A stretch of 64,000 nucleotides of DNA, taken from a virus. A program made the position numbers and the translations under genes. Positions 6,300 through 52,390 of this stretch are shown here, one piece after another (the stretch's first letter is position 1; every line of letters starts with the position of its first letter). Below the pieces are notes generated by a model, which ran no database searches, had not been told where the DNA came from, and saw nothing but the letters and a program-made list of their open reading frames with translations. The stretch lies in the IMG/VR virus record IMGVR_UViG_3300027782_000060, positions 1 to 64,000 of that record. One strand, written 5' to 3'.

Positions 6300-9200
6300 T
6301 TATTTCCATGGTCCGTAGTGCTTGGTGTCGAGGGCGTACTTCCTTGACTCATCAACTGAATAGCGTCGAGTTTCTGATTCGTCGATATTCCCCATTGCGT
6401 AGTACAAGAATTTTGGAATTTCATGTTTCCCGCCATTGGAGTAATCGTAGACCGTTGCTTCGCCCATCAAGCGCACCTGTCTGATATTTGACTCAATGCG
6501 AGCCTTTTCTGACTCCGTTTTGGCAACACGTAGTTTTTCATTGAGACGCAGAATCTCTCCTGCCGTCCTGTCGACTTCAACCCAGGCATGTCCATACCTG
6601 ATGCCAGCAGCCTCACCACCAGTTCCGAGGGGTATGCCATGCACGACTTTGACTTCCGTTCCTTCTTCTTTGCTAAATCTGTTGGTTAGTTTTTGGGCTA
6701 ATTCAAAAGCGGCAGAATAGCAATCCCCATCTCCGTCTGGGTTTACTTGCCCATACTTCTTCTCAAAACGGCTATCAAAGTTCTTGGTTTTGGATGACAT
6801 TCCTTGTGGGCTTCGCATCCAATCGTCTGACTGGTCAAAGAGCGCAGTAAGAATTTCGGCTCGCTTTGGATAGAGGGTTGCAAATCTGACATTCCCGCGC
6901 TCCATGCCATTTTCGTTAAATTTTTTACCAATATAACCTTTTTCTCTATCGATTAGGAATAATGCTACAGATTCAGCAAAATCTTCAATCAGAGTATATT
7001 CGCCAGCATCATACGCTGTTTGGGCATACGGAGTAACCCCATCTGTTCCCGCAGTAAAACGCCTGCTCACAAACTTAATAGTCCAACCTTTGCCAAGAAA
7101 CTCATTTTTCCATTCTTGTGAAGTTCTTTTATCCCCATCCGAGGCGTTTCTCCATGCTACGCCGTCCGATATTTTTTCATGATGCCACTGCTTTATGATT
7201 CCAAATATTCCTCCGGCATCTTCTGAAATTCGTTCAGCGACCCTGTCAAAAGAATGACCCCATTCGTGACGCAGAGTATGGACGCTCGGCAGAGCGCCGT
7301 TATAAACCGTCATTACTCCATTAGCACTCATTGTTGCGGCAGAAACAAAGTTTGGATTACCATATTTTTCTTGCGAAAATTTATCGTTTTCATTTGCTGC
7401 GTCTATTAATAAAAGTTGAGGCACTTTCATTTTGTATTTTTTTGAAAGTTCTGCAATATTTGCTATTTCGTATTCAATTGCTTTTAGGTTCATTTGCTCC
7501 AAGGAACTTATATTGTTCTGTTGATGCAATCGTTTATCAAGTTTTCGTACTCTGTAGAGATAGTCGTATGTTTCTTGCGTAATTTGCTTAACAACTAATG
7601 CTCCATTGATTTTTGTTGCAACGGCGTAGGGAATTGCCTTTGTCTTGCTCGTAATCGGGACATCTCTTATGAGGATGTTATGTCCTTCTGGCAAATCTGA
7701 TAAAAATGTTTGTGCAAAGATGCCGTCAAGTTGGCCCACAAAAGACGACCCGTTCAACGTGTAAGGGTCATTGCTGTCGACCTTAATAGCGTTTCTGAAA
7801 TCTTCAATGGCCTCGACGGCCTCTTGAGTCAACGACAATGTTGGCCTGGTTGATGGTGTTATTTCTGGCTTCTGAATTGCCTGTCCTGTTGGCGCTCCGG
7901 GAGGCGGTGGAATCGTTGGTCTTGTTGGCGTCATGACAGAAGACATTCCAGTTCTGCTGTCGTCAGAAGGAGAGTAGCCCCATTCCAGCCATGAATTACC
8001 TTCGGTAAAGATTTCTCCGGCTTTGACTTTCTTAGAAACAATCTTGTAATCCCCATCAAGATTGGATTCGCCGTGATATTGGGCGTATTCGCGTAACGGA
8101 GAAACCCAATCACCTGCATTTATATCATCGCCAACATTCTTGGGAACAGCGCGATAGATGGTTATTTCCTTCTCGGGCTTTCCGCGCATGTCTTTAATCA
8201 ACTTGAACATCTTGCTATTCAGCAACATCTGCCCGTGGCTATACATTCTGTAACCATCATCCGTATATACGTCTTCTGGGTATATCCCGTTTCCTGTCAG
8301 GTCGCTTAATGGCGCCCCAGCATCACGCAGTGGAGCGGTATGTGACATTCTGTAATCTTCTGAACTAGAAAGAACGCCGGGATTATTCTGTGCACGAATA
8401 ATTAGGGCACGTTTCTTATTGTGCAAAATTTCTTGGTCCGATATTTCCCTAAGCATTAAGTCACTCACCCGACCAATTGGCATCGAGCGCGATGACATGC
8501 CACTAGAGGAACGTGGAGAATCATCTAAAATTTTTAAAATGTCATCAAAATTTCCTACATAATTGGCTATTGCGCCCCAAAGTTCCGACGGCTCCATTGT
8601 TACATCTTCATTGAAGTTGGTAATAAAATATAAACCGTATTCGCCAAACCATGCTTGTTTTACAGCATTCCTTTCTGCTGGGGTTGCATCAAAATCAGGA
8701 TGGTCAACTAATGACATTATTGCAAGAGCATTTGCCCACTCGCCATGCCTATCGACACCCCTGCCCATAGCAAAATGACCGAAGGCATCATGCAATCCAT
8801 CTCGACCGCCCATGTCTCCTGCCTCTGGATTAATTAATGAAGCAAGAAAAGAACCTACAAATAAATTGTTTATTGGAATACGCTCTATTGCTTTCACAGG
8901 ACTAACCCGACTGCCTTTGGAAAGTTTTTTAAGTAAATTTCTTAAAAAATCTTCAAATCTTGACAACTCACCACCGTCGCCACCAAGAATATCGGCGTAT
9001 TTCTCATCCAATATCTCCCATTCTGCGACATTATACATACCTTCTATTGACTCCGGATTTCCAGTTTCTCCCGTATAGCGTTTACGCGCCACTAATTCTC
9101 CCGCAGGGGAGTAGTAGTTAATCCATTCACCATCTTCTTTTGTTGTAAATTGATTTTCCAATGCCTTCTTTAAGGCTGCTTCAACATTTTCTGGTTTTGT

Positions 9201-12200
9201 TAATTCAATCAGTCTCCAGTCTCGTTGAACTGGGTATTCTTTTTGAAATATTGGATTTGGTTTTGAATGAAGCATTATGATTCCATCAGAAGATACGCTG
9301 ACTGCAATTGAATCAATAATGTCATTGACCGAATCTTTCACCGCTGGATGAAATGGGGCTTTTCTTATTTTACGGTCGTCAAGTTTGTCAATTGCTGTTT
9401 CTAATTCCTCAAAGCCGCGCATGCTTTCGGCATCGTCAATCTCTAATGCATTTAGTACTTCTTGGAGTGTTTTCCCATGCAGTGAAATCAAATCACGACG
9501 AGAAAGCATCCCGGATGGCAATTTATCTTTTGAAACATATTTCTGTGCGGCCTGCTCAAATAGAGCAATAGCAGCGTCCTGTGCTTCGTACACATTGGGA
9601 GAATTGAACTGATTGGGTACTTCAAAACTTGCTATTGGTGTTCTGACCCCAAAAATTTGATATTCCTGAGACGGAAACCCTTCCACTACTTCTGTCTTGG
9701 GGACTCTTACGAGATATGTTTTACTTGTTGGGAAGTCGTTGCGTACATATCCAGTACTAGGTCCTTGTGATACATGGCTGTAACTGAGATGTTCTTTTCC
9801 TGCTTTTGCTAGCGGATAAGCATATTCATACCGAGCCATTACTATTTTCCCATTATCAATATAGCGACGCGCCAAATCTCTTAAATATTCAGGATTAATG
9901 CGTTCATCATCTTGGCCTTCTATGTAGGTGCCATAGTCCCTATGACCAATATCCCTACCTGGAACTCTTGTGTTTTGAGCCAACTTTGGCCCATCCCAAA
10001 CTCCAGTTTCATCATATTCTTTCAACGCAAGTTGATAAGCGTTCAAATCCTGCTCCGCCTCCTCGTAGCGGTTGATGATACTGTTTCGGGTTATGGCATT
10101 GAGCCTCTGAGTATCCATGCCTTGACGTGCATAAGTCCCATCGCCGCCCTTGGGCAGCGTGAATGATGGGTCAAGAACGCCACCGTCAAGTACTGGTACG
10201 CCAGTATGAACCAACCACGTCGCATCGGGGTCGTCTTTAGTTAACGACCATGCCCTGTCCTCCATCGAGCCACGTGATTCTCTTATTTGCTTACCACGTT
10301 CGGCGAGGGCTGCAAAATTTGGTAGGTCAACGATTGATATTGCATTTATATGTGCAATATCTCCATCGTTTTCCATTCTGTCCAAATTGGCAATTCGGTC
10401 GTTTACGTGTTCGAGTTGTTTTTCAATTTGAGATAGATAGCCATTAAATATGGAACCCAAAGCGTCCTTGTCGCCCATCCCGCTTGATTCTTCTGCTGAG
10501 ATATTTCGGGTTATGCCTTTTTTTGGATATTGCGTTCGTGGCAATGCGACGCCATTTGTTTCCCCATTCCATATGCCTGTTTTTTGCCATTCATCAATAG
10601 TTTTTGATAAAACGGATTTTTCGTCTTGCAATACTTTCTGCAACTTTTCCAAGTCTGTCCGCCCAAAAGTATTTCGTAATTCTGAACCCGCTTCACCAAA
10701 TGAATCATGAGCAGTTACATCCAGCCATTCAGAAACTATTTTAGAACGCATGCCGACCATATCGCGACCAGGAGAAATTAGACCAGGGACATCACTTGAT
10801 GGGGATACTATATTTTTTACAATGTCACCCATTTCCTCAGCAACAGGAAGGGTTCCATCAGAATCAATTGCATCAGAATTCACATCATTCATTCCATTTT
10901 CATCGCGAAATGTCGGTGAGTTATTGAGGATGTAATTTACGGCTTTTTGCGCATCCGAGATAGCATTCTTGACAGTATCTGGGTCATCTTTTATTTTTCT
11001 CTTCCAACCCTTGATGTATTCAGAGTGGTTTTGCTGCGGTTCTGCTTCCATACCAAGCACGCCCATAAGAAAGGCTGAACCAAATTCAGCCACTAACTCT
11101 TCGTACGCGTAGTCCTGATTACCAAACTCATTCATATCAAGCCTATTGAGTCGCTGACTATGCCCGGTCCAGTGAACAAGTTCATGCATCGCCGTCTGGT
11201 AATAGCCAAGCGGCTCAGTGAATGTGGAGAATGGGGGCAGACTTATGGAGTCATCTGTTGGATTGTAAAAAGCACGCAGACCAAATCCGCCATTTCTAGT
11301 TGGCATATTCGTTGACTCACGAATCGTGGCCCCAAGTTCTTCAATTATGGAGTCCATGCGCTGAACTCGTTGTTCATCGCTAAGAACCGGTAGCGCATAC
11401 TTTTCTGGGTCGACGCCAGACACTTGGTCAATATTAAAAACATTGTGGAGTCGCGGTCTCATGTACCTACGTGTTTCTATTGTCCCGTTTGGACCAATAA
11501 TCTCTTTCTCCATTGATGACCAATGGACAATAATTGTCCCACGTTCGCCCTTTTGAACTTGACCACCAAGTTCTTGCCACATCTTGTATGTGCCCCACAT
11601 TGGGTGCGTATGGTTAGAATCTGTTTGCGTTATTCCAAGATTAAATATATTGGAACCACGATAGGCCTGTTTGGTCTTCGCATTTCGGGGAAGCAGAGCC
11701 CCTAGGTTCCATGGCCTAACCCATTTGTCCCCGTCTGCTTCATCCAGCGAGGCAAGTATTGCGTCTGACAATTTTGAATACATTTCTTCAATTTTGTCTT
11801 CTGCTTTTTTGCTGTCATTTGTTGCCTTGGCTGACCGCATACCGACGGTATCGCCCGCAACAATTCCACTAAATTGCTTGAGCATCTTTACGGCTCGCGG
11901 GTTCAAATCATTTCTGTTGTCTTTGATTGTGTTATTGGAAACCTGTTCCCGCACTGTAGCAATATGGGCTCGATTTGATTTAACACGATTTGCTTTTTTT
12001 GGAATTGTTAATTTTGTACCAAAAACATTGTCTTTATCTGCAAACAATATTGCGTTAATAGAAGAAAGAAGAGTTTGTTTTTGTTTTGCCTCAGATATTT
12101 CAGAGTCAAACTTATTTAAAGAATCAAGTAATATTTGTTGCTCTCTGTGTATCTGCGATGCATCTGCCAATAACTTATTCGGAGGCATATCCTTAAACGC

Positions 12201-15200
12201 TGATGGATTTTTCTCTCTGGTCGAATTGACTTCTTTTACCCATCCTGCAATATCGTTAGATTCAATAAATTTGACTGGGTTAATTAAAGAACCGTCGCTC
12301 AATTTACTGTTTTTCATCGAGAGCAATTGCGATGTTGTTGAATTAAATCTTTCAAGAGTGAGTCGTCGGTCATCCTCCATTGTCATCAGTTCTGTGTTAA
12401 TACCAGAAAGATGAGAATGTATGGCATCAATATTGTTGAGCGCACTAATTTTTGTGGCTTTGTCCTTAGAGGAGTTGACATCTATAAGTGCATCATTGAA
12501 TGCCCCATGTATTTCTCCTGCGCCCATAAGGTGGAGCGAGTTGAGTCTTTCTTCTTCCTTAAGTCCTTCAGAACGAAGACTGCGCGGTATTGTAGAGTTC
12601 ATGTATCCAACGTTTACGTCGCCCCATTCAGTATTCTCATTGGCGACTAATCGGGTCAGGTCAGTGTTCCCTAAGTAGGCACCATCAAGCATGGAGCCCT
12701 CTAGGTCAATAGTCGCATATCCGTTTTCGTCAGAGAAAGTTAAATTTGATAGATTTGCACCACGAAGGTCTGTATTTTTTAGAGACAAATTCCCAACGAT
12801 GATACTATTTGAGAAATTTGAACCAGCCAGATAAGAGCCATCAATGGATGAATTGGCAAAAAATGAATGAGAGAAGTCTCCGTTCGTCATGTCTATGTCT
12901 CTAGCGGATAGGTTTATAAAAGTTCCATTAGACATCACGCCATTTGTTATGTCGCAATTCTCGATGTCAACGTTATTAAATTCAGGAAATGAGATGTAGA
13001 GGTTTGATACATCCATATTTTCCAACTTGTGGTCGCTTAGTAAAGTGCGGCCATTATCTCGTTTGAGTAGACCGTTCAATAAACGAGCATCTTCTTTTGC
13101 CGATATATCCGGCAAGAAATTTGAATTTTCAAGAATATTATTTACTGAATTTAGCGATATTGAATTTCTTCGAACGCCCCTGCTGGAACTCATTCCGCCA
13201 GATTCTGGCATTCTCTCTTCAAAGTATTGTTTTGCCCATTCGGCATTACTCAATGAACCAGCGCCATACTTCTTGTCCCCAAAAAACTTATCCCAAACTT
13301 TTTGGTCATGAATAATGAATGTCCCATCCTGGCGGCGTTCTGCAGCAATTTTCGGAGTGCGCCCAGTATTATCCCAAAGATAAAATTCGTCATAAAGACC
13401 AGACGTTATTTGTCTGGAAATAGTTCCTCGTGAACGCAACTCATCCGATATGTGACTACCATATCCATTACCAAGAATTGCTCCGCCATTCTCCGCACGC
13501 TTGCTAATATTTGCATCCGCTTCCTTGGATGGGACGTAGACAAAATGGCCAACAGTTCTGTATCCAGCATCACGCATCATTGCAAGATGTTCTGTTCGTT
13601 TGCCTATTCCTTGAACGACAACATCTCCATGCGATTCTGCCGCTTCGGCCATAAATAGGTCGGTCAAGCGTCGTGAGCGTGGGTGCAAGGCTTGAGCGCC
13701 ACGCCCACCACCCCACCCGTCCATGTGTGTTTTTATCTCATCTGGGTCAATATGAAAAGCGTTGTTACTATTTGGTACACCAAGAACCCCAGTAGTGACT
13801 AGTGTAGATTTACCCGAACCAGGGATGCCCCCAACGTGATGATATGTGGGTTGCTGTTTGCCAAGTTTGCTTTTATCTACCCTGTCGAAAATTATTGCTC
13901 GTGCGCGTTGTTCGTCTTTGCCTAGTAGGCCCGTGGACGAGCGCATGCCCATGCGACGATTTTCGTTAAGTGATTCAGAGCCTGTTCGCAACAGCATCTC
14001 TAATGGAGCATCGTCAATATATCCAGGATTTTGATTTAGCCAATCAACATATTCTTTCGAGTCTAAATTATCTGATGATGGGAAAATCGAATTTCCAAAT
14101 CTTTGCGATGAAGCCATACCCCCAGAGAATGGGTCGTCATCAAAAGAAGAGAAGCCATTCCCACCGAGCATTGATTCCAATTCCCACATATCTAAACCAA
14201 GAACCGCTGCCATATTTTGCTTTGAGAGATTGTCCACTCTGTTGCGATTGTTTGCATCGCCATCAGTCGCATGGGCGAATGCTTCGGCAAACCATTCAAT
14301 GCGAGCAGTTTCCGCATAGTTGCTTATTCTTAATGCCGATTCATGCTCGTCATCAGTTCCCCATGCGGCCTCGTGATAAGAAGTTCTGAATGTTGCTTCT
14401 CCTCTGTCTTCAATTTCTTGCAGACCTTGAAACATTTCAGCAAATTGTGCAATGTAATGTTCTTTTGCTTTATCGTTTGTTTTGGCGGCCATTGTTTCCC
14501 ATGCATGGGCCAATTCGTGTCGCATGTTCATGACATTGTCAGTGTCACGATGTCCGCCGTTTGCATAGAATGAAGAACTTGGGAAGGTTGCCGCATTAAA
14601 ACCTATGAAGCCCTGAGGCGCCCACCCAGCCATTGTTGACATCCATGAGGTCGGACCAAAGTTTGCAGTTTCAGTGTTGGGTTGATGGTTTGTCACAACC
14701 ATGACCGGAAGACCATATCTCCGAATAAAATTCGCTACCGCAGGATTTGTGTCGATTTGGTCTTTTAATGACCGAGCAAGTTGTTGACCAGCATCGTAAT
14801 CAATTTCTGCGTCCTCAATGCGTCGTGAAAGATTTTTTGGTGACCCAACCAAGTAGGGGCTTTTTTCTAGAGCAGTACGAAGCGTGCCAGGGCTAGATAT
14901 GACGTTGTCATCAACCAGCCACTTCAGTTGCTCGTTACTGTTATTCTCATATTTTCCAGAAACGTTACGCATTGGCCAAGTTCTTGCCCTGACTGTACCT
15001 TTAGCCGCTCTGACAAACTTCTTGGGTATTGAAACTCCAGCATCAACTGGAGGAAGAACTCCTGGAGTAAGTACGGTATTTTCTGCCCACTCTCTTGTTC
15101 GTCGACTACTAGATAATCCAGATGAGCCAACTCCAAGATTGCTAACTAAATTTTGAACATCACGTTCAGTAATCGCGCCAGCCATAGGGTCACTGCTGAG

Positions 15201-16115
15201 ACGCCTATTCTTTTCGTTTTGCTCAGCGGTTCCTTCCATAAGTTTAGAAACACGCCCTGCAAGACTTTCAGGAATAGTGAATCTTGGAATAATAGGTCTT
15301 TCGAGCGGCTTCCCTTCAAAAACAATTCCGTCTTTGTCGGCGTCAATTGCTCCTGTGACGTCGATAAACACCATACCGGGAGGGGCGGACCGTAGGCCTC
15401 TTCCTAATTTTGGCCCAAGTCCTTTAAATTCCATCTCAGCAACCTGTGCGCCATTAACTTGCGCTGCTAGAACTTTCTTGTGTGTTTCTAGGTGGAGTTC
15501 AGAAAATAGCGATTTACTTCGCTCGCGTTTGGGCTTTGGTTTTAACTTCTTGAAAGCCTCAGTGATTGTTCGTTCTGCTGCTTGGCGCATATGGCGACGC
15601 CCAAGGGATGTGGTTCCGGCAAGGCGGGCATAGTCGCTCATGTTGGTACATGGCATCCAGACAGTCTTGCCACCACGAGAAATTCTTCGACTAACACCGA
15701 TACATCCCAATTGACGAGACCTATTACGCGCCACTTCTACATCGCTAAATACATCTGGGTCATTATCGTTGGGCGCCCACCCGAGGGACTTTGTGCCCAT
15801 TCCTCCACCAATAAGCGCAGACGGCGCTCCGGCGACAATGCCACCACCCTGGATATTGTCAATTGCAGATATTGGTCGTTGTCCTAGAGTTTCCCACTGT
15901 TTTTTAATCTTATTAGAACCACGAGCATCTCGTTGTGGGGGAGTCCCTATTACGGACGATGACTGAATGCGCTTTTTTGCACTGACGTAGTCGTCATGAT
16001 TACTACATGGATGCCATGCTCCGTCGTCCATTTGATGAGCACCAGAGCAACCAAGTTTTTGTGCTTGACGCAATGCCCTCATCTTGGACATAGTTTTCGA
16101 TGATAGAGCAGCCAT
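6300..16115 (-). CDS. Giant polyvalent polyprotein, 3,271 aa: zincin, zeta kinase, pentapeptide, ArdC, ADP-ribosyltransferase-like, zincin, Cys/His domains
   Basis: The ATG at 16113-16115 has AGGTGG 7 bases upstream. Two Cys-motif repeats (LGCSGAHQ; LGCIGV) come first, then the shared DADKDGIVFEG module near residue 260. Domains in order: zincin (HELAHAWE, ~532); zeta-toxin-like P-loop kinase (GIPGSGKST, ~765); pentapeptide repeats (~1030-1140) with a helical region; ArdC anti-restriction (ssDNA-binding WVRPWN start, HELVHWTGH ~1643); an unassigned region; a HDAFGHFAMGRG domain (~2445); an ADP-ribosyltransferase-like domain (ITIYRAVPK, ~2655); zincin (RHEWGH, ~2950); and a C-terminal Cys/His domain (GDCYSAA, GHAWVEV). 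G-M-x-S motifs lie near 14117, 13945, 13192, 11845, 10750, 9508, 8497, 7943 and 6799, nearly always between domains. I infer processing into about ten pieces. Confidence 0.92.
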   Translation of the reverse strand: MAALSSKTMSKMRALRQAQKLGCSGAHQMDDGAWHPCSNHDDYVSAKKRIQSSSVIGTPPQRDARGSNKIKKQWETLGQRPISAIDNIQGGGIVAGAPSALIGGGMGTKSLGWAPNDNDPDVFSDVEVARNRSRQLGCIGVSRRISRGGKTVWMPCTNMSDYARLAGTTSLGRRHMRQAAERTITEAFKKLKPKPKRERSKSLFSELHLETHKKVLAAQVNGAQVAEMEFKGLGPKLGRGLRSAPPGMVFIDVTGAIDADKDGIVFEGKPLERPIIPRFTIPESLAGRVSKLMEGTAEQNEKNRRLSSDPMAGAITERDVQNLVSNLGVGSSGLSSSRRTREWAENTVLTPGVLPPVDAGVSIPKKFVRAAKGTVRARTWPMRNVSGKYENNSNEQLKWLVDDNVISSPGTLRTALEKSPYLVGSPKNLSRRIEDAEIDYDAGQQLARSLKDQIDTNPAVANFIRRYGLPVMVVTNHQPNTETANFGPTSWMSTMAGWAPQGFIGFNAATFPSSSFYANGGHRDTDNVMNMRHELAHAWETMAAKTNDKAKEHYIAQFAEMFQGLQEIEDRGEATFRTSYHEAAWGTDDEHESALRISNYAETARIEWFAEAFAHATDGDANNRNRVDNLSKQNMAAVLGLDMWELESMLGGNGFSSFDDDPFSGGMASSQRFGNSIFPSSDNLDSKEYVDWLNQNPGYIDDAPLEMLLRTGSESLNENRRMGMRSSTGLLGKDEQRARAIIFDRVDKSKLGKQQPTYHHVGGIPGSGKSTLVTTGVLGVPNSNNAFHIDPDEIKTHMDGWGGGRGAQALHPRSRRLTDLFMAEAAESHGDVVVQGIGKRTEHLAMMRDAGYRTVGHFVYVPSKEADANISKRAENGGAILGNGYGSHISDELRSRGTISRQITSGLYDEFYLWDNTGRTPKIAAERRQDGTFIIHDQKVWDKFFGDKKYGAGSLSNAEWAKQYFEERMPESGGMSSSRGVRRNSISLNSVNNILENSNFLPDISAKEDARLLNGLLKRDNGRTLLSDHKLENMDVSNLYISFPEFNNVDIENCDITNGVMSNGTFINLSARDIDMTNGDFSHSFFANSSIDGSYLAGSNFSNSIIVGNLSLKNTDLRGANLSNLTFSDENGYATIDLEGSMLDGAYLGNTDLTRLVANENTEWGDVNVGYMNSTIPRSLRSEGLKEEERLNSLHLMGAGEIHGAFNDALIDVNSSKDKATKISALNNIDAIHSHLSGINTELMTMEDDRRLTLERFNSTTSQLLSMKNSKLSDGSLINPVKFIESNDIAGWVKEVNSTREKNPSAFKDMPPNKLLADASQIHREQQILLDSLNKFDSEISEAKQKQTLLSSINAILFADKDNVFGTKLTIPKKANRVKSNRAHIATVREQVSNNTIKDNRNDLNPRAVKMLKQFSGIVAGDTVGMRSAKATNDSKKAEDKIEEMYSKLSDAILASLDEADGDKWVRPWNLGALLPRNAKTKQAYRGSNIFNLGITQTDSNHTHPMWGTYKMWQELGGQVQKGERGTIIVHWSSMEKEIIGPNGTIETRRYMRPRLHNVFNIDQVSGVDPEKYALPVLSDEQRVQRMDSIIEELGATIRESTNMPTRNGGFGLRAFYNPTDDSISLPPFSTFTEPLGYYQTAMHELVHWTGHSQRLNRLDMNEFGNQDYAYEELVAEFGSAFLMGVLGMEAEPQQNHSEYIKGWKRKIKDDPDTVKNAISDAQKAVNYILNNSPTFRDENGMNDVNSDAIDSDGTLPVAEEMGDIVKNIVSPSSDVPGLISPGRDMVGMRSKIVSEWLDVTAHDSFGEAGSELRNTFGRTDLEKLQKVLQDEKSVLSKTIDEWQKTGIWNGETNGVALPRTQYPKKGITRNISAEESSGMGDKDALGSIFNGYLSQIEKQLEHVNDRIANLDRMENDGDIAHINAISIVDLPNFAALAERGKQIRESRGSMEDRAWSLTKDDPDATWLVHTGVPVLDGGVLDPSFTLPKGGDGTYARQGMDTQRLNAITRNSIINRYEEAEQDLNAYQLALKEYDETGVWDGPKLAQNTRVPGRDIGHRDYGTYIEGQDDERINPEYLRDLARRYIDNGKIVMARYEYAYPLAKAGKEHLSYSHVSQGPSTGYVRNDFPTSKTYLVRVPKTEVVEGFPSQEYQIFGVRTPIASFEVPNQFNSPNVYEAQDAAIALFEQAAQKYVSKDKLPSGMLSRRDLISLHGKTLQEVLNALEIDDAESMRGFEELETAIDKLDDRKIRKAPFHPAVKDSVNDIIDSIAVSVSSDGIIMLHSKPNPIFQKEYPVQRDWRLIELTKPENVEAALKKALENQFTTKEDGEWINYYSPAGELVARKRYTGETGNPESIEGMYNVAEWEILDEKYADILGGDGGELSRFEDFLRNLLKKLSKGSRVSPVKAIERIPINNLFVGSFLASLINPEAGDMGGRDGLHDAFGHFAMGRGVDRHGEWANALAIMSLVDHPDFDATPAERNAVKQAWFGEYGLYFITNFNEDVTMEPSELWGAIANYVGNFDDILKILDDSPRSSSGMSSRSMPIGRVSDLMLREISDQEILHNKKRALIIRAQNNPGVLSSSEDYRMSHTAPLRDAGAPLSDLTGNGIYPEDVYTDDGYRMYSHGQMLLNSKMFKLIKDMRGKPEKEITIYRAVPKNVGDDINAGDWVSPLREYAQYHGESNLDGDYKIVSKKVKAGEIFTEGNSWLEWGYSPSDDSRTGMSSVMTPTRPTIPPPPGAPTGQAIQKPEITPSTRPTLSLTQEAVEAIEDFRNAIKVDSNDPYTLNGSSFVGQLDGIFAQTFLSDLPEGHNILIRDVPITSKTKAIPYAVATKINGALVVKQITQETYDYLYRVRKLDKRLHQQNNISSLEQMNLKAIEYEIANIAELSKKYKMKVPQLLLIDAANENDKFSQEKYGNPNFVSAATMSANGVMTVYNGALPSVHTLRHEWGHSFDRVAERISEDAGGIFGIIKQWHHEKISDGVAWRNASDGDKRTSQEWKNEFLGKGWTIKFVSRRFTAGTDGVTPYAQTAYDAGEYTLIEDFAESVALFLIDREKGYIGKKFNENGMERGNVRFATLYPKRAEILTALFDQSDDWMRSPQGMSSKTKNFDSRFEKKYGQVNPDGDGDCYSAAFELAQKLTNRFSKEEGTEVKVVHGIPLGTGGEAAGIRYGHAWVEVDRTAGEILRLNEKLRVAKTESEKARIESNIRQVRLMGEATVYDYSNGGKHEIPKFLYYAMGNIDESETRRYSVDESRKYALDTKHYGPWK
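7940..8500 (-). other. ADP-ribosyltransferase-like domain inside the 3,271-aa protein
   Basis: The segment contains ITIYRAVPKNVGDDINAGDW followed by SPLREYAQYHGES and a closing WLEWGYSP, the pattern of phage polyvalent ADP-ribosyltransferase-like domains. The Arg of IYRAVP is the likely NAD-binding residue. It is bracketed by GMSSR (about 8497) and GMSSV (about 7943), giving a fragment of about 185 residues. Activity cannot be judged from sequence alone. Confidence 0.65.
10950..11850 (-). other. ArdC-type anti-restriction domain inside the 3,271-aa protein
   Basis: This segment starts with the ArdC N-terminal pattern (DKWVRPWN, AYRGSNIFNLG, WGTYKMWQELGGQV, KGERGTIIVHW) and ends with a zincin-type metal site (HELVHWTGH) and YEELVAEFGSAFL. 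ArdC proteins protect incoming DNA from restriction and are known from conjugative plasmids and phage polyvalent proteins. It is bracketed by GMRSA (about 11845) and GMRSK (about 10750), so one cut at each motif would free an intact ArdC of roughly 365 residues. Confidence 0.92.
13190..13945 (-). other. Zeta-toxin-like P-loop kinase domain inside the 3,271-aa protein
   Basis: A Walker A loop (GIPGSGKST) is followed by AFHIDPDEIK and a long helical stretch ending with VVVQGIGKRTEHL and VYVPSKEADAN, the arrangement of zeta-toxin/UDP-N-acetylglucosamine kinase-like proteins. It lies between GMRSS (about 13945) and GMSSS (about 13192), a fragment of about 250 residues. In toxin-antitoxin systems this fold blocks cell-wall synthesis; its action here after delivery is inference. 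Confidence 0.82.
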
Positions 16116-16141
16116 TTTCAATCCACCTAAAGCAGTGATAT

Positions 16142-16499: not shown

Positions 16500-19400
16500 T
16501 TACTTACGTCCTGGTACTACGTATCCCGGCGAAAGACCTCGTCCTTGAGAGAGTGAAAGAATCTCATCAACTGGAAGTGGGTCAGCAAATACCGAAACCG
16601 CTGCACGGTTCATGAGCAACATTACATCACCTCCAACATCTAGGGCGTCAGCACCAAATATTGGACCATAAACGTTTTCGTGTTGATTAACCAGGGTGGT
16701 TAGGCGGAATAGCGCATTTCGCAATTTCTTATATTCTTCTGGCGATGGATTCGATTCAAGTGCACTAATTAACTGCAATGTCATTCCTCCAATGGCCGAA
16801 TCCCAAACTTCTGAATCTCGTGGAATTTTTCCAAAAACGTCACTAACTAATTGGTCAACAAAATCTTGTTGTGGGGTTTTTTCTAATTCTCCCTCTGGAT
16901 AACCAGAGAAGTTTCCAAGAATGGGTGAAGAAAACGCACGATGCTGTTCACGAATGGTATTAAGTTCGCTAGATTTCATAATTTTGGCGGTCGGGGGTAG
17001 TAGGCCAGCAATTCCTCCTGGTCCGTCACCAAGTTCGCCTGGGTCTGGATAGTACCCTCCAATCCAAGCAGTACTTGGACCAGTTGACCAGTATTCACCA
17101 GGACCATATGCTTCGCCAGCGGGTGGGAGAAATCGCTTTGGATGGTCCATGTACGAAATTGCATAACCACGAGCACCAGTTCCACGTTTGATTGGCATCC
17201 AACCGGCAGCAAGGAGTGCGCTATATTCTTCTTCATTAATTGGGTTTGGAGTTCCATTCATGCCCGCCGCTTCCCATGCAAATGCGAGGGAGTGTCCGCT
17301 GTCATTTCGCCCCTTACTGTTGTAGGCCTTTTTCCATTCTCTTTCGCCTACTTTGAGGTCTTTAGAAAGAGCAAGGATGCCACCTGGTGTCAGCATTCTT
17401 GCACCAGACTCAGCAGAAGCAATTAATGGCACGGAGTCGTTGTTGCCTGCCGCACTCTTATCAAGAGCGTCCATCTTGCGAGCCTTCGCATTGAGTAGTT
17501 TCTTTCGAGCAATACGGCTTATCTTCATTGCTCGCTTGTCAAGGAGTGACGGCCTGTCAGTCTTTCGCTCGCCAACCTGTACTGAACCAATGTTTATGCC
17601 TTGTTGGCGCATCTTTTTGATTCGGCGTTCTTTGGCTTTTTCGTCAGCCTTACTTAGGTCTTGTGTTTTTGTACGTAAGAAATCAAGTAATCCACCAACT
17701 CTGCTTGCTTTCTTTACCTTGACGTCATCTCCAGGAACTCCAGCAGAACGAAGAATGTCGTCTTTTTCGCTTAATGGACGTCCAGGTACATTGATTGCGG
17801 TTGAAGTTGCAGCCATTTGTGCTTTAGAAAAATTGAACTCAAAAGGCCTATTCGAGCCAGACTTTGAATAGGGATTTATTTTCTCCACTGGGGCAGAGTT
17901 CTTGCCCTTAGTCGTCGTCGTTGCGCCAATGTCCATAATTCTTGCCTTGGAAACTGGATGTAAATGGTCAATGGCGAAGTCGTATGAGTCATTTTTGTCA
18001 ATGAGTGAATCATCGGCATCTCCCTGTATGCGCGCTGCACTAAGCGTCTCCAGGTCATCGGATAGACGCAGAAGGGTGGTTAGTTTTGTGACTTTTTCTT
18101 TATGTTCTTTTATTTCGCCCTTGGCAAGATGCTCACGCGCTTCCTTGGCTAGTTCTTTTGCTTTTTTCTGAACGCCATACTCGCCAGAAAATAAAGGCTT
18201 AAGCCCTTCTTCTGCAAGAAGGAAATGACCATAGGCATCTTGGTTTGCGACAACCCACGGATTTCCTCCCCCTGTTTGTTTCATTATTTTTGCACGTTCT
18301 TTTGCTGGCAACGTCTCGTCAAGAAGACGTCTATCTGTTCCATTGACTGGAATATCAAACTTGTCGAACAACATGTCGATAAGTTCGCTTTCACGCGCAC
18401 GTGCCCTTTCGGCAAATAACTGCCTATCTGCGGGCGATAGGGTTTCCCATAATTGCCCATCATTAGCAGAAGCCCTCTGTTGCCCTGGACTTATCTCATG
18501 CGCCTTGTAGAGCGCACTCTTCCGGGCAGAACGCATTCCTGTTGGTGAGCCGATTGCTGTTCTTTCCAGCATTGCCGTGCGTGAACGCTGAGTAAATCCA
18601 GCGGGTCGTACAGCGCCACTAGTGCGTGAACCCATGCCTGAATTGGGGGCAACACTACCGCTACTACGTCGAACGCCACCGCTCAATGCAACGCGTGAGT
18701 CAAATGTTGGGGCGATATAGTCTAATGCGTACTCAACGCGGTCGCTAATTCCAACGTCGGAATCCTCACCAAAGACTTCTTTAAGTGCCTGTATGGCATT
18801 GAGAACATCTTGAACACGTTGCGAAGGCATGTCTGCATCCTCGAACATGTCACTAATGGATTGATGCAGTCTCTTATTGCTGTCAAATTTTTCTGCACCT
18901 GGATACACGTCACCAAACGCTGAATTGCGCGAGAAATCTGACAACTTCTTTGTTGCGTCATTAATATCGCGTTTGCCTTCTGGAGTGAGGCCACTAGTAC
19001 GTGAACTCATACCTCGCCAGAGAGTGTCGGGTAGGCCTGAATCAATTTCCTCAGGAGACCATCCGTCGTAAATGTCTGCTTCTCTTGAGAATTCAGAGAC
19101 ATCCGGGCCTGGATTAAACATGCTTACGTTTTCCATGAACGTCTTGCTGCGTCGGAAATCCGCTTCTGTCTTTCTTGGAAAACGAGTGAGCCAATCCTCT
19201 AGGTCTGCTTCGTATTCGTCACTAGCAACGTAGTTTTCTCTGTCAGCCAATGAGGGAAGAAATCTATTCGTGTCAAAGTCATTATTGCTTGGCTTCCTTG
19301 ATGAGCGCATGCCAACGCTTTGTTCCCAGCCCTTATCTAGTTTTGTGCCATTTAGATTTGCTCCAGAAAAAATTGCACCATCTAGGTTTGCGCCAGTAAA

Positions 19401-21761
19401 ATCGACATTCCTGAGGTCTGCATCTGTCATGTCTGCCATGGACAAGTCCGTACCTCTGAGGTCTGCATCTCTGAGATTTGCCCCCTGTAGTTTGGCATTT
19501 GTCATATATTTAATATTGCCTAAATAAGCATTACTCAGGTCTACATTTTCAAGATTTGCTTTCCATAATGATGCCCCAGTTAGGTCAGCGCCACTGAGTT
19601 TGGCGCCCCCAAGGTCAACCTTGTCTAGATTTGCAAAACCAAGTTGAGCATCGTTTAAATTTACTCCATTCAAATTGGCATCTAATAAATTTGCTTCACG
19701 CAAATCGGCATACTCTAGACGTGCGCCTTCGAGATTTGCATCTTCGAGATTTGCTTTAATTAAATCGGCTGCATAAAGGTCAGCATCTACGAGGCGGGCG
19801 CCTTGCAAATTGGCTTCATATAAATTGGCTTCGCTTAAATTCGCTCCAGTGAAGTTTTTATTACTTAAATTCACACCTTCGAGATTGGCACCAGAAAGGT
19901 CTTCTCCACTTAAATCTTCCCTACTTAGCAAATCATCTGAAAGACGCTTGCCTTTCCACTTCGTTTCGGACAAATTCGTCTTTTTAGTAGTCGCGTCTGG
20001 TCCCTTGCGAGAGGACATGCCAGTACCTGAACTAGTAGGGAAATCTTTCAAGACTGCAGGGTCATTTTCTGCGAGAATGTCAGTGAAAAGAGCAAGTTCT
20101 TCATCGCTCATGTTTGAGGAATCAAAAACAACTTCAGGGTCTTGGCGTGGTACTCCGACTCTGCCACCTTCATCTACATTGAATCTGCCGGGGAATTCTC
20201 GATACAAAACATCTGACAATGGATTATTTCCCTCAATATCATAATTCCCACGAGAGTCCGTATCTATACCGAACTGAAGCGCATCATTTGACCATGCAGC
20301 ATTGTCGAAGAAAAGTTCATCTACTTCGGATTGCTTGAGCGGGTTATTGTTGCCGGTTCTAGCCGAGCGCATTCCTGCCGCCTCACGGCGACCCTGCATT
20401 CTGCTGGCAAGCGTTTTGTCTGGAGCGTGGGTTCCACCTGAAGTGAAATCGTATCCAGCCTTCTTGATGTCATTCATGATGCGACCGAGTGCATCAGGAT
20501 TTTTCTCTAGTTCATCAACCCAACTGTCGTCGACGTTGTTGTACGTATATGTGCGACCACCAGCAAACGTGACAATTAATTCCTTTGCCGAATCATCCCA
20601 TGTCATTTTTTCAACAGCGCGCGAATCGCCGGTATTCAACTGAGTCTTTTCACCACGCCCAACCCTAGACAGGTCTATCGAGCCAGTACGTTTAGCGATA
20701 ATCGCATCACGTCGACTTCTAATGTTCCCAGCAATAGAACGCATGCCAGTGGCATTTGCGTTATCGCTATCAGTCAACGGAGAAGGAGCATTTAATTTAT
20801 TGAGGGATGAGGCGTCAGTTCCGAGAATACTGCGAAGTTTTGCCTCGTCAATTACTCCACCACCATTCGCGCCCGAGCGGCGATTCTTTTCATTCTGTTC
20901 TGCTGCTCCACCAATCAGTGAAGCCACACGACGACCGACACCTTCTGGAAGAATGAATTTAGGAATAATTGGTCGTTCTAATCCAGGCTTACCCTCAAAG
21001 ACAATGCCATCCTTGTCAGCATCAATCGCTCCGGTAACGTCGACGAATACCATTCCCATCGGAGCGGAACGTAGTCCACGACCCAACTTTGGACCAATTG
21101 CACCACCGAGTCTTTTGAGTTCAATGACTTTGGGGTGCGTATAGAAAGGACTGAGTGATTTAGCATAAACATTCTTGGCTGCCATGACATTGAAACCAAT
21201 ATTGCGCTGTAGCGACTTGGTGTATGTAGTTTCGATATTCTGCTGTAGCGAGGAATGAGAAATTGTTATGTCATTGCTTCTGAATTCACCGGTTTTTTCA
21301 TTGAAGCCAAGACCAGCCGAACGAATTTTCGCCATTAGCGAAGATGACTTCTGGTCATTCTTAAATGCGTAAACCTTGAAGTTGATGGCATTCTGTCTGG
21401 CGTCGATATTGAACGAACGCAGTTGAAAATCTCGGGCTGACGGGGTTGATGAGTTTGCTCTAGTAACATATGAACTCTTGTATGAAAAAGTCGGCTTCTT
21501 TATTTCGCCAGCATTTGATGCAGATTCAATAAGTGATTCAATAAATAATTCAGTATCATTCACTAATGGACGCTTGTCGGTGGCAATGACGCCAACCGGA
21601 AGTGCTTCTTGTAGGGACTTGAGTGATGTCGAGTTAGCCCAATTAGCCCACTCTTTTGCTCTGTCATCGGCTCCGTAGAAACGAAAACCACCATCTTTTT
21701 CAATGACGAGGCCAAATACTTTTTCCTCGACCGCGTCTCTAAGGATGGCGTAATTTTTCAC
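16500..21761 (-). CDS. Polyvalent polyprotein, 1,753 aa, with KTSC domain, long pentapeptide-repeat domain and ADP-ribosyltransferase-like C-terminus
   Basis: A GTG start overlaps the stop of the 677-aa gene (GTGA) with GGAGG 6 bases upstream. Residues 1-220 are unassigned. The shared module with GPKLGRGLRS and DADKDGIVFEG follows near 225-270. Next are a KTSC-like domain (about 375-440: FAGGRTYTYNNV), a short acidic domain, and about 35 pentapeptide units (about 610-810; consensus A[N/D]L). The C-terminal 680 residues contain IDHLHPVSKA, possibly HNH-like, and near the end IKRGTGARGYAISY with YGPGEYWSTGPS, which resembles an ADP-ribosyltransferase core. Seven G-M-x-S motifs (about 20745, 20372, 20015, 19310, 19008, 18632 and 18537) separate these parts. 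Beta-helical pentapeptide proteins can mimic DNA, for example to shield gyrase; use here is inference. Confidence 0.9.
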   Translation of the reverse strand: MKNYAILRDAVEEKVFGLVIEKDGGFRFYGADDRAKEWANWANSTSLKSLQEALPVGVIATDKRPLVNDTELFIESLIESASNAGEIKKPTFSYKSSYVTRANSSTPSARDFQLRSFNIDARQNAINFKVYAFKNDQKSSSLMAKIRSAGLGFNEKTGEFRSNDITISHSSLQQNIETTYTKSLQRNIGFNVMAAKNVYAKSLSPFYTHPKVIELKRLGGAIGPKLGRGLRSAPMGMVFVDVTGAIDADKDGIVFEGKPGLERPIIPKFILPEGVGRRVASLIGGAAEQNEKNRRSGANGGGVIDEAKLRSILGTDASSLNKLNAPSPLTDSDNANATGMRSIAGNIRSRRDAIIAKRTGSIDLSRVGRGEKTQLNTGDSRAVEKMTWDDSAKELIVTFAGGRTYTYNNVDDSWVDELEKNPDALGRIMNDIKKAGYDFTSGGTHAPDKTLASRMQGRREAAGMRSARTGNNNPLKQSEVDELFFDNAAWSNDALQFGIDTDSRGNYDIEGNNPLSDVLYREFPGRFNVDEGGRVGVPRQDPEVVFDSSNMSDEELALFTDILAENDPAVLKDFPTSSGTGMSSRKGPDATTKKTNLSETKWKGKRLSDDLLSREDLSGEDLSGANLEGVNLSNKNFTGANLSEANLYEANLQGARLVDADLYAADLIKANLEDANLEGARLEYADLREANLLDANLNGVNLNDAQLGFANLDKVDLGGAKLSGADLTGASLWKANLENVDLSNAYLGNIKYMTNAKLQGANLRDADLRGTDLSMADMTDADLRNVDFTGANLDGAIFSGANLNGTKLDKGWEQSVGMRSSRKPSNNDFDTNRFLPSLADRENYVASDEYEADLEDWLTRFPRKTEADFRRSKTFMENVSMFNPGPDVSEFSREADIYDGWSPEEIDSGLPDTLWRGMSSRTSGLTPEGKRDINDATKKLSDFSRNSAFGDVYPGAEKFDSNKRLHQSISDMFEDADMPSQRVQDVLNAIQALKEVFGEDSDVGISDRVEYALDYIAPTFDSRVALSGGVRRSSGSVAPNSGMGSRTSGAVRPAGFTQRSRTAMLERTAIGSPTGMRSARKSALYKAHEISPGQQRASANDGQLWETLSPADRQLFAERARARESELIDMLFDKFDIPVNGTDRRLLDETLPAKERAKIMKQTGGGNPWVVANQDAYGHFLLAEEGLKPLFSGEYGVQKKAKELAKEAREHLAKGEIKEHKEKVTKLTTLLRLSDDLETLSAARIQGDADDSLIDKNDSYDFAIDHLHPVSKARIMDIGATTTTKGKNSAPVEKINPYSKSGSNRPFEFNFSKAQMAATSTAINVPGRPLSEKDDILRSAGVPGDDVKVKKASRVGGLLDFLRTKTQDLSKADEKAKERRIKKMRQQGINIGSVQVGERKTDRPSLLDKRAMKISRIARKKLLNAKARKMDALDKSAAGNNDSVPLIASAESGARMLTPGGILALSKDLKVGEREWKKAYNSKGRNDSGHSLAFAWEAAGMNGTPNPINEEEYSALLAAGWMPIKRGTGARGYAISYMDHPKRFLPPAGEAYGPGEYWSTGPSTAWIGGYYPDPGELGDGPGGIAGLLPPTAKIMKSSELNTIREQHRAFSSPILGNFSGYPEGELEKTPQQDFVDQLVSDVFGKIPRDSEVWDSAIGGMTLQLISALESNPSPEEYKKLRNALFRLTTLVNQHENVYGPIFGADALDVGGDVMLLMNRAAVSVFADPLPVDEILSLSQGRGLSPGYVVPGRK
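19320..19930 (-). repeat. Tandem pentapeptide-repeat array
   Basis: About 600 bases of 15-base tandem units encode A(N/D)L-x-x repeats, visible on the plus strand as repeated AAATTNGC/AAGTCNGC blocks. It forms a right-handed beta helix in known families. GMSSR precedes it and GMRSS follows it, so it would be released as one piece. A smaller array lies at 12690-13020 in the 3,271-aa protein and another at 48330-48930 in giant protein 1. Confidence 0.92.
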
Positions 21762-28056: not shown

Positions 28057-28337
28057 TTTGTGCCTTCATTTTCATCAAATGCTTTTGGAAACTTTGAACG
28101 TGCTATTTCCTCGTCGACTTCCATTATTTCATGGGAGCCGTTAATCATAAAACCAGTAAGGTCGGTGGTGGCGAGCCACTCATCTTTTCTCCATTCAACT
28201 TCCTCAATCCCCTTGGAGCCTTTCTTCGGGTAGTCCAGGTTGAGATAAAGGCGAAATAGGCCAATAACCTTCCCATTGTTGAGCACATGAAAGAAGTACC
28301 TAGTTGATTCAGGGGTATCGGATGAAATCATTTTCAT
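28053..28337 (-). CDS. Small hypothetical protein, 94 aa
   Basis: The ATG at 28335-28337 overlaps the stop of giant protein 2 (TAATG) and has GGGAGG 6 bases upstream, a strong coupled start; a longer frame from 28364 is less likely. The protein is beta-rich (STRYFFHVLNNGKVIGLFRL) with an acidic C-terminal half. No family is recognised. It lies between giant protein 2 and the zincin-containing protein. Confidence 0.75.
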   Translation of the reverse strand: MKMISSDTPESTRYFFHVLNNGKVIGLFRLYLNLDYPKKGSKGIEEVEWRKDEWLATTDLTGFMINGSHEIMEVDEEIARSKFPKAFDENEGTK

Positions 28338-31300
28338 TACTTGCCTCCCTGTTGTTGTGCCCAAGTCTGAAAGTTCTTCCTGGCTAGGTTGCCTATTCCC
28401 TTGACGTCACCCTTGGGCATTGGAAGTTCTCCTGCAGCGGCAGCCATTCTTCGGAATAACTCCAAACGAATGACATCATCTTTTTCTTTTTGATACTCGT
28501 CATAAGCATCGTGTGCTGCTTGCTTAACTTTAAACGATTCAGGCGTGTGTAGTTGCAACTCGTACAAGAAACCATCAGGGTGTTTTACTACGATGTTAAT
28601 TCCTTGATATCCATCGCCTTCGTCCCAGTAGTTTTTAACTTGTACTTCATGCCCTATTCCCTCAAGACGACTAATTACGTTTTCTGCTCCGCCAACATAT
28701 TCTTCTTCAGGAAATGTCATTGTGTATCTGACCGCGTCGGGAACCTGCAGTTGTGCCTCTTCTACCGATATGCCGCTATCTCGCGAAATATTAGTTATCT
28801 TCTTTGCGTTTCCTTTAGTTGCCTTAAACCTGAATTCAAGACCTTCCATCTCTCCGCCACCTTCGGCGGCCATGTCAATCAAATTGTCAGTAAGTTCTGG
28901 TTCAACTTTTTTGACTTTGTCATGTAGTTCAACTGCTTTTTCAACAACCTCGTCGCTATATTGACCTTCGGCTGGCATTTCGTCGATAAATTCAGGTATA
29001 TCTACACCCTTGTGAGTTCTCTCAATTTTTGGTGGCGTCTTTACTTCGGGAGTATCGGGCTGGCCTGAGGATACTTTCTCGGGGACGCCGCCCTCGCCAG
29101 CACGGACGCGCACATTCTTGCCAACAGAGGACCGCATTCCCCTGCTTGGTTTTTTAGCATATTCCTCACGCCGAGCAACTTCTTTTTTAATTTTATCGAA
29201 CTCTTTTGAACGTCGCATGTAGGTAAAATCACTGTCACCCTTGTCTCCAGGGCCTCCCAAGTAACGTAAATATTTTTCGTATATTGCTTTTAATTCTTCA
29301 TCACTCGTATTGCGATAAGGACGTAAAAGAGAACCGCGACCACCGCCATCTACTCCAGCATCTTCCCTACGTCGAGCAACTTCTTTTTTAATTTTATCAA
29401 ACTCTTTAGCCCGTCGCATATAGGTAAGGTCGCCGTCTCCCTTATCTCCAGGGCCACCCAAGTAGCGCAAATACTTGTCGTACTGGGTTTTTAGTTCTTC
29501 GTCACTCGTGTCGCGATAAGGACGCGAAAGAGAACGCATTCCTTGAGGTTCACCACTCACTTCTTCAAGTTTTCCGCCACGTATTTCTTCAAGTTTTTCA
29601 CGAGGTACGCGTACTTTTCCGCCACTCACCCCACTCTGTCGAGCGGCCCACTCTTCGCCACGTTTGCCTGCCTCCACCTGTGCTGCGGCAACTTTTGGAT
29701 TCTTTCGTGCACCAAGAGATTGTTTACGAATGAATTGATTATTGCTATGTAATTCATCCAACGTGTCTGTCAATTTGGAGTGATATTCATCCATCTCTTT
29801 GACTATTTCACCCAACTCAATTCCTGGGACTTCATCATTTTTAACAAATTGACGTTCGCCTTTAAGTTTCGCCTCTTTAATTCCCCACTTATCCTGGAAT
29901 GCTTTTCCTAAAGTGAGGGCTTCGACAACGTTTGTTTGTACTTCCTTCCATCGAAGGCTAAGTTTCTCATCTTCTGGAAGTTCGTCATTAATTAACTTAA
30001 TTGCCGCCCACCTATGATGGCCGTCCAGTACGTATCCATCGCGTGTTGCAAGTAATGGGTCAGTCCACCATGCTTTGACTTTTACCCCATTGCTGTCAGC
30101 AAATTTATATTCCCCAGCAAGCCACTTCGCACGCATTTCTTTATATTCTGGTGTACCTTTTTTGAGTCCGAGTGATTCGGCGTGTGAATCAAATTTTGTT
30201 AAATTTTCTCGAATACCATCACGCATTTCGTCAGTCTTATGACCAACCAATTGACGTTGTGATGCTTTATACGATTCTGGCCTGGCTGTTTTTAGAATAA
30301 CTGCCGAAGTAGGGTTGCCATCCTTGTCTACAGGCTTTAACGATGATTCAAGACTCTTTTCAAATTCTTTTACAACATCAGCCTCGCTATTATTCCAGTC
30401 GACAAGACTGTAGAACTCTTCTTTTTCACCAGGACCAAATGTTTCATCCCTGCCTGGTGCTACATGTTTTGCTTCTAATTCTTTAAATCTTGCCAATTCC
30501 TCTGGCGGAAGGTTCTTTTCATCGATAGCCGCCCATTTCATAGGGATGTGTCCATCTTTTGCGGCACGCATCGCTAGCGTATCGTCACCCAGTGTGCGGC
30601 CCGACAATTGTGGCATCTGTTCCCTATCAATGCCGATATTTTCTCCACACATGACATTTTTGCCAGCAACATATAGTTTGCATAAATCTACGGTAAGTTC
30701 ATCGAGTAGTGCGTTTCTTTCGTCAGCAGAAAGATTTTCAAGTTTTTTAACATTTGCTTCAATCATTTTCCTGAATGCTGCTTGACTGTCGGATACTTCT
30801 GCTGCAAGACCATCATTATCTACTTCGACGTTGTACCCACGTGCGAGCATTGCGATTGCCGTAGCACCATCTGTCGTATGGTAGATGTCCCTGCTATCAA
30901 TTAAAGACTTTTCTCCACTTCGCGCAACACCAAATCGTGATTGGAGTTCACTTTCGCTCAAACCATCGAGGTTCACTCCGTCCAGGGCATCCATTGTTTT
31001 ACTGACAGCATCCTCATGCATCTTTCTGGCATTGGGCTGCACTGCGCTTGATGTATCTACCCTATTTGCACCAACGCTGTCTCGTCCTCCTGGCGTCGTA
31101 ATGCCCGAGCGACGCGACGCCATTCCTCCAGATGAAGGAACGCGCGACGGAGATGAACGTTCTCCTGGTTGCTTGTCAGTCAATACGCGACGCTCAACAA
31201 ATTGCATTGACTGCCTATACGATTCACCCTGTTCAAATCCTGGTGATTCAGGCTTAAAGAATGGATGTCCATCACGTTCTTCGAGGGCTTTAACTTTGTC

Positions 31301-38626: not shown

Positions 38627-38655
38627 TCCGGGCTCCAATCCCACTTACTGCTTTG

Positions 38656-52360: not shown

Positions 52361-52390
52361 ATCTCTCCTAGCGTCTATTGACAATGATAG

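What the first reader, a model, noticed from the sequence alone, without database searches (positions are those of the whole stretch)
6300..16115. One gene encodes about ten anti-host effectors
Seen in order: zincin, zeta-toxin-like kinase, pentapeptide repeats, ArdC, unassigned regions, a HDAFGHFAMGRG domain, ADP-ribosyltransferase-like domain, a second zincin, a Cys/His domain. Known: ArdC guards entering DNA against restriction and all these folds occur in polyvalent proteins. Inference: cutting at the nine motifs would deliver a whole kit into the cell with the DNA. The unassigned segments between motifs are prime candidates for new effector families.
Basis: partly seen in the sequence, partly recalled or inferred. 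Interest (0 to 1): 0.85.

Follow-up and report, generated by a model that had tools for sequence, protein, structure and literature searches.

The report
Phage polyproteins with lineage-specific cut sites
A bacterial virus strings many separate protein modules, including a known shield against bacterial DNA-cutting enzymes, into giant chains joined by one short repeated motif; each related virus uses its own motif, which suggests that the viral head protease cuts the chains into a set of proteins delivered with the DNA.

Summary
The 3,273-aa ORF (6300-16121, minus strand) has nine GMxS motifs (0.6 expected) that split it into ten segments, eight or nine of them with a single recognisable or conserved module. 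No profile-defined domain is crossed by a motif. It is one of four to five motif-bearing giant proteins encoded between the S78 prohead protease/portal genes and the HK97-type capsid gene of a myovirus. (1) Each related phage lineage carries its own motif in its giant proteins (GM[RS]S, GMRSR, SSRS, STRS, LSSG, LRSSG, RGLxSST), almost exclusively. (2) One 414-aa module, 75-83% identical between phages, is bordered by GMRS, LSSG or STRS according to the phage it sits in. (3) The prohead protease is joined to a giant protein, either in one ORF or across a -1 frame with an A_AAA_AAA slippery site, a 7-nt spacer and a hairpin. I infer head-protease-processed polyproteins whose pieces are carried in the capsid. 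Cleavage, packaging, injection and anti-host activity are not shown. Modelling of two unassigned segments failed (pLDDT 56 and 47). Best filed as a new variant of phage polyvalent / head-cargo proteins.

The parts
6300..16121 (-). 3,273-aa motif-partitioned giant protein (probable ATG start at 16115)
   Evidence: ORF; nine GMxS motifs
15201..15389 (-). leader block (residues 245-307, ..GLRSAPPGMVFIDVTGAIDADKDGIVFEGKPLERPIIP..), shared with the 1,753- and 3,430-aa proteins and with many giant proteins of relatives; proposed head-targeting element
   Evidence: blastp 64-77% identity; function inferred
14202..14684 (-). zincin-like domain 1 (HELAH at residue 535), in the leader-containing segment 1-667
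   Evidence: conserved in two other lineages, replaced by an HTH-like region in G013/G016; no significant Pfam hit
13950..14120 (-). 57-aa segment 668-724 without recognised domain
13197..13949 (-). segment 725-975: zeta-toxin-like P-loop kinase
   Evidence: PF06414 E 5e-7 at 753-879
11844..13196 (-). segment 976-1426: pentapeptide repeats plus unassigned C-terminal half
   Evidence: PF13599, phrog_15350 E 1e-6
10755..11843 (-). segment 1427-1789: complete ArdC unit (ArdcN + MPTase-PolyVal)
   Evidence: PF08401 4e-23, PF18818 8e-35; PDB 6sna 3e-48
9513..10754 (-). segment 1790-2203: unassigned 414-aa module found in other lineages with their own border motif
   Evidence: 75-83% and 42% identity; motif-to-motif match in another position
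8502..9512 (-). segment 2204-2540: HDxFGH..GxxxDRHGEWAN domain of unknown function
   Evidence: invariant H/D/R/E residues in six homologues; weak phrog_3170
7950..8501 (-). segment 2541-2724: 'ParB C-terminal' family / ART-like; a stand-alone 164-aa gene near tail genes in Mycobacterium phage Phabba
   Evidence: phrog_2579 2e-35
6804..7949 (-). segment 2725-3106: zincin-like domain (HEWGH at 2952)
   Evidence: homologous to G007_15976 2941-3254
6303..6803 (-). segment 3107-3273: putative Cys/His/Asp enzyme (GDCY..GHAW..YDYSNG)
   Evidence: 39% identical to the C-terminus of the L088 protein with C, H and D kept; activity inferred
16500..21761 (-). 1,753-aa motif-partitioned protein (7 GMxS) with leader, KTSC and pentapeptide modules
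28337..38644 (-). 3,435-aa motif-partitioned protein (7 GMxS)
40515..50807 (-). 3,430-aa motif-partitioned protein (17 GMxS); leader, NUDIX, HTH, pentapeptide modules; lies in the -1 frame after the protease
50900..52384 (-). S78 (HK97-type) prohead protease, proposed processing enzyme
   Evidence: PF04586 E 5e-12; TIGR01543
50915..50921 (-). A_AAA_AAA slippery heptamer at the protease / 3,430-aa protein junction
   Evidence: conserved in L004-L008, L095
50865..50907 (-). hairpin GCCCUUAG...CUAAGGGC, 7 nt after the heptamer; paired with different bases in L008 and L095
4317..5627 (-). HK97-fold major capsid protein with a conserved [FT][KR]SIG[DE] segment at its probable maturation border
   Evidence: PF05065 1e-43; alignment; homologues 1ohg, 9lbm
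52485..54515 (-). portal protein
   Evidence: PF04860 1e-45

Best explanation
The gene encodes one of several polyproteins made for the inside of the phage head. Each chain has a leader block that probably takes it into the prohead, and autonomous modules separated by a short motif. The phage's S78 prohead protease, itself joined to one polyprotein by in-frame fusion or -1 frameshifting, cuts at the motifs (probably just before the conserved Ser, e.g. GMR|S), as it cuts the capsid protein. The released modules (ArdC, kinase, zincins, ART-like and others) stay in the capsid and enter the cell with the DNA, where some counter host defence. Shown here: motif excess, module borders, lineage-specific motif replacement, protease-polyprotein linkage in sequence. 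Inferred: cleavage, the enzyme, the cut bond, packaging, injection and effector action.
For: Motif counts are nearly diagonal across lineages: GM[RSA]S 36 vs 0.7 expected in the window phage, GMRS 37-38 vs 0.1-0.2 in G005/G008, SSRS 17 in G007, [SGP]TRS 11 in G026, LSSG 17 in G024, RGLxS 12 in G016, LRSxG 18 in G012/G013. One module carries the recipient's motif at its border: VGMRS in the window, TLSSGS in L088, TLSTRS in L094. Motif codons follow background codon usage, so selection is on amino acids. HSP ends within 20 aa of a motif: 94 of 381, null mean 42, maximum 66 in 1,000. The same module lies motif-to-motif at another place in G008. The protease is fused in frame in G005, G007, G008, G012, G013, G016 and G024, or joined by an A_AAA_AAA/7-nt/hairpin -1 site in the window, L004-L008 and L095, with stem bases that differ but still pair. 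Position is between protease/portal and capsid genes. Cultured actinophages and a sister group without giant proteins show no comparable linker motif. Precedent: P1 DarA, a co-ejected antirestriction protein, is cut by prohead protease Pro (PMC12810830).
Against: No proteomics or cleavage data. The putative capsid cut segment (FKSIGDEF/TRSIGEAF) does not follow the lineage motif, and protease catalytic domains are 73-97% identical although motifs differ widely, so specificity change would need few residues or lie outside that domain. Zincins occur in every lineage read from protease to capsid gene and checked for them. Some borders differ: G008 lacks a strict motif between zincin and kinase (GFRS and AGMSS variants seen). 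Folding of segments alone is untested.
Confidence: 0.66

Rival explanations
1. The motifs are cut by one or more of the zincin-like metallopeptidases carried in the polyproteins (auto-processing, as proposed for polyvalent proteins), not by the prohead protease.
For: Three HExxH sites in this protein and HExxH in every lineage checked; Iyer et al. 2017 propose zincin auto-processing.
Against: Zincin positions are variable, and the one at the start of this protein family is replaced by an HTH-like region in G013/G016, whereas the S78 protease is always next to or joined to a polyprotein.
Confidence: 0.15
2. The motifs are uncut linkers: the giant proteins are packaged and injected whole, like N4 virion RNA polymerase, and the motif is a hinge or a docking site on the head or portal.
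For: N4 vRNAP is packaged unprocessed (Iyer et al. 2017); motifs lie in Gly/Ser/Arg/Lys-rich linkers.
Against: A generic hinge does not explain near-exclusive, lineage-wide motifs and their replacement after module transfer. A docking site could.
Confidence: 0.12
3. The motifs are DNA-level recombination tags or recent copies spread by gene conversion, which shuffle modules and carry no protein function.
For: Modules are shuffled at motifs; one 67-aa unit is repeated at 79-84% identity within the genome.
Against: Codons at the motif vary as in the background; only the amino acids are conserved.
Confidence: 0.03
4. A host protease cuts the motifs after injection, and lineage differences follow the host.
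For: Motifs differ by phage lineage and hosts are unknown.
Against: Does not explain fusion of the phage's own head protease to the polyprotein.
Confidence: 0.04

Closest known systems
Polyvalent proteins (Iyer et al. 2017, PMC5512222)
   Same: Many unrelated domains in one chain, ArdC-N + MPTase, zincins, ART-like, genes beside virion genes, predicted entry with DNA.
   Different: There, processing is ascribed to zincins or a C-terminal assemblin-like peptidase. Here an S78 prohead protease leads a polyprotein (fusion or -1 frame), a short motif marks most module borders, and the motif is lineage-specific.
P1 Dar proteins (DarA, DdrB)
   Same: Head-internal, co-ejected antirestriction proteins; DarA is cut by the prohead protease (PMC12810830).
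   Different: P1 makes separate proteins and DarA loses one N-terminal piece; here many modules per chain.
SPN3US head proteins cut by the prohead protease (PMC10052503)
   Same: Prohead protease cuts internal head proteins at a short motif, several sites in one propeptide.
   Different: There, N-terminal propeptides are removed; no multi-module polyproteins and no protease fusion reported in the passages read.
Retroviral Gag-Pro-Pol and picornavirus-type polyproteins (own knowledge)
   Same: Works like them: protease in the same chain, repeated sites, -1 frameshift with slippery site and hairpin.
   Different: No relationship; dsDNA tailed phage, HK97-type protease, head cargo.
ArdC of plasmid pSa (PDB 6sna)
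   Same: Segment 1427-1789 matches over its whole length (E 3e-48).
   Different: Here one module in a polyprotein.

Membership tests
Polyvalent proteins | Several domains of disparate activity in one polypeptide | tested here: met
Polyvalent proteins | Typical domains: ArdC-N, MPTase-PolyVal | tested here: met
   PF08401, PF18818 above cut-off
Polyvalent proteins | Gene next to virion structural genes | tested here: met
   between S78 protease/portal and capsid
Polyvalent proteins | Protein enters the host with the DNA | not testable with these tools
   needs virion proteomics or an injection assay
Prohead-protease-processed head cargo | Prohead protease encoded with the cargo | tested here: met
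   PF04586; fusion or -1 frame
Prohead-protease-processed head cargo | Repeated short motif at expected cut positions | tested here: met
Prohead-protease-processed head cargo | Capsid protein shares the lineage's cargo motif | tested here: not met
   capsid has [FT][KR]SIG[DE]; only a basic residue before Ser is shared
Prohead-protease-processed head cargo | Cleavage shown | not testable with these tools
   no proteomics
-1 programmed ribosomal frameshift | X_XXY_YYZ heptamer in zero frame, 5-9 nt spacer, downstream structure | tested here: met
   A_AAA_AAA, 7 nt, hairpin in three sublineages; folding z-score of the window structure modest, -1.54
-1 programmed ribosomal frameshift | Frameshift product detected | not testable with these tools
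   needs a reporter or peptides
ArdC antirestriction protein | Full-length match with HELVH site | tested here: met

The most novel reading that the evidence does not exclude
A group of tailed phages uses a retrovirus- or picornavirus-like strategy. About a third of the genome encodes polyproteins of exchangeable effector modules; their shared cut site and the head protease co-evolve, so that each lineage has its own cleavage code and an imported module is recoded to the new owner's code.
Probability: 0.5. Interest if true: 0.88.

Novelty: new variant of a known kind. Interest (0 to 1): 0.76.

Why it matters
If the motifs are cut sites, they parse giant phage proteins of unknown content into single modules without any homology, giving candidate counter-defence proteins with exact ends. 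Lineage-specific motifs offer a natural series for studying how a viral protease and dozens of its sites change together. It would also answer, for one phage group, the open question of how polyvalent proteins are processed: by a head protease made in the same chain.

Tried and rejected
AlphaFold2 of segments 1790-2203 and 2204-2540 with 5 and 6 sequences: pLDDT 56 and 47, not interpretable; Foldseek of the first, no match better than E 0.58; profile searches of PDB with both alignments, nothing. tblastn of the leader in cultured phages: no match. DNA-level explanation of the motif rejected by codon usage. Looked for the lineage motif in the capsid protein: not found. Combined alignment A2 of two different segments was misaligned and dropped. 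The zincin-absence argument failed, since zincins occur in all lineages checked. First-try coordinate, length, file and term requests failed. The viral scan for segment 2204-2540 found no relative. Literature searches found no paper on phage polyproteins joined to a prohead protease; the library is open-access only. The domain-versus-motif permutation (p 8.5e-5) overstates the case, because some cores were found with queries already cut at motifs; with profile-defined domains alone p is about 0.1, and about 0.01 if the two whole-protein homology blocks 2288-2533 and 2779-3096 are added (by hand).

Full report
What was given. One minus-strand ORF at 6300-16115 was said to encode about ten anti-host effectors separated by nine motifs. 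The window is the first 64 kb of a 90.3-kb IMG/VR virus record. It holds a portal gene, an S78 prohead protease, an HK97-type capsid gene and a large terminase; from tail-like ORFs in the rest of the record I read it as a myovirus (no profile search done there). Host unknown; the nearest cultured proteases are mostly in actinophages.

Observation. It holds nine GMxS motifs against 0.58 expected (maximum 4 in 2,000 shuffles). Four sister proteins carry 7, 7, 17 and 1-2; three neighbouring non-motif proteins have 0-1. Domain order is as reported, with one correction: the ArdC unit includes a zincin, so there are three HExxH sites. Between the motifs lie one module per segment, except a 57-aa segment with none and the first segment, which combines an N-terminal DUF3721 region, a leader block and zincin 1.

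Segments are separable units. The ArdC segment matches free-standing ArdC over its whole length (PDB 6sna). Segment 2541-2724 corresponds to a stand-alone 164-aa gene close upstream of the tail-sheath gene in Mycobacterium phage Phabba. Segment 1790-2203 matches a motif-to-motif segment in relative G008 that lies at another place in the chain. Across genomes, ends of homology blocks lie within 20 aa of a motif 94 times of 381, null mean 42, maximum 66 of 1,000 (blocks are not all independent).

Lineage-specific motif. Fifty-three relatives of the protease were found and the protease-to-capsid regions of several records were read. Every lineage has a different over-represented motif in its giant proteins: GM[RS]S (window), GMRSR (G005, G008), SSRS (G007), STRS (G026, L094, L095), LSSG (G024, L088), RGLxSST (G016), LRSSG (G012, G013). 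The count table is almost diagonal; the patterns were chosen after discovery in the same data, but the excesses are about 30-fold or more. The best single test is the 414-aa module: 75-83% identical in the window, L088, L094 and L095, yet its left border reads VGMRS, TLSSGS, TLSTRS and PGTRS, the motif of the phage it sits in. Codons in the motif follow background usage, so selection is on the protein. A common theme is a Ser preceded by Arg or a small residue.

Link to the head protease. In G005, G007, G008, G012, G013, G016 and G024 the protease and a motif-bearing protein are one ORF. In the window, L004-L007, L008 and L095 they lie in -1 frames, joined at A_AAA_AAA read in zero frame (TCA AAA AAA or CAA AAA AAA), close to the zero-frame stop, with a 7-nt spacer and a hairpin whose stem differs in sequence but still pairs: GCCCUUAG/CUAAGGGC, GCCCAA/UUGGGC, GCCC-GACU/AGUU-A-GGGC (the bases were paired by hand). 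In the window an alternative fold is more stable than this stem in isolation, and the z-score is modest. Nucleotide identity between the window and L007 rises to 56/60 just after the heptamer from 43-51/60 upstream. The -1 frame restores the full leader block upstream of the 3,430-aa protein. An assembly error is unlikely, because several contigs share the same junction.

Leader. A block ending in DxDxDGIVFEGxPxERPIIP precedes the first motif in this protein, the 1,753-aa and 3,430-aa proteins and many giant proteins of relatives. It resembles a Ca-binding loop and may be the head-targeting element (inference).

Mechanism. The simplest account is a set of polyproteins brought into the prohead by the leader, cut by the S78 protease at the lineage motif, and ejected with DNA. 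Shown: motif statistics, module borders, motif replacement, protease linkage. Inferred: everything biochemical. Against: the capsid protein's likely cut segment ([FT][KR]SIG[DE], by analogy with HK97, own knowledge) does not vary with the motif, and catalytic domains are 73-97% identical. If the protease reads the motif, specificity must turn on few residues or on its variable C-terminal half.

Known relatives. Iyer et al. 2017 define polyvalent proteins and suggest zincin or C-terminal assemblin-like peptidases as processors. P1 DarA shows that an ejected antirestriction protein can be a prohead-protease substrate, and SPN3US shows many-site processing of head proteins. No paper found in the held library joins these, which is not proof of absence.

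Limits. Structure prediction was inconclusive. All relatives with the linker motifs are metagenomic. 'Anti-host' rests on family membership of ArdC only.

Noticed in passing
L002 (record 64001-80000), gene at record 69284-71386: A PAPS-reductase-like gene appears to carry an in-frame intein (CVDGDTEV...LADHILTGNC).
   Followed up: no
window 28337-38644 (residues 3035-3168) and 40515-50807 (845-911): A 67-aa unit occurs twice in tandem in one giant protein and once in another (79-84% identical), with the border motif: recent module copying within the genome.
   Followed up: partly
L107-L108 (G024), ORF of 3,305 aa: A motif-bearing polyprotein (LSSG) with a leader-like start lies away from the head genes, beyond the capsid gene, so polyprotein genes are not tied to one site.
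   Followed up: partly
window 38656-40452: A 598-aa acidic protein follows the protease-linked polyprotein in the lineages read; no family; possibly scaffold.
   Followed up: no
window 16500-21761 (380-422) and 28337-38644 (1838-1877): KTSC domains recur as modules in two giant proteins and in relatives.
   Followed up: no
window 3508-3990: Ferritin/Dps-like gene next to the capsid gene.
   Followed up: no
window 9513-10754, residues about 1975-2010 of the protein: Segment 1790-2203 has an LVHTG...LDPSF...GGDGTY pattern reminiscent of PARP-type ADP-ribosyltransferases; no profile or structure support found.
   Followed up: partly
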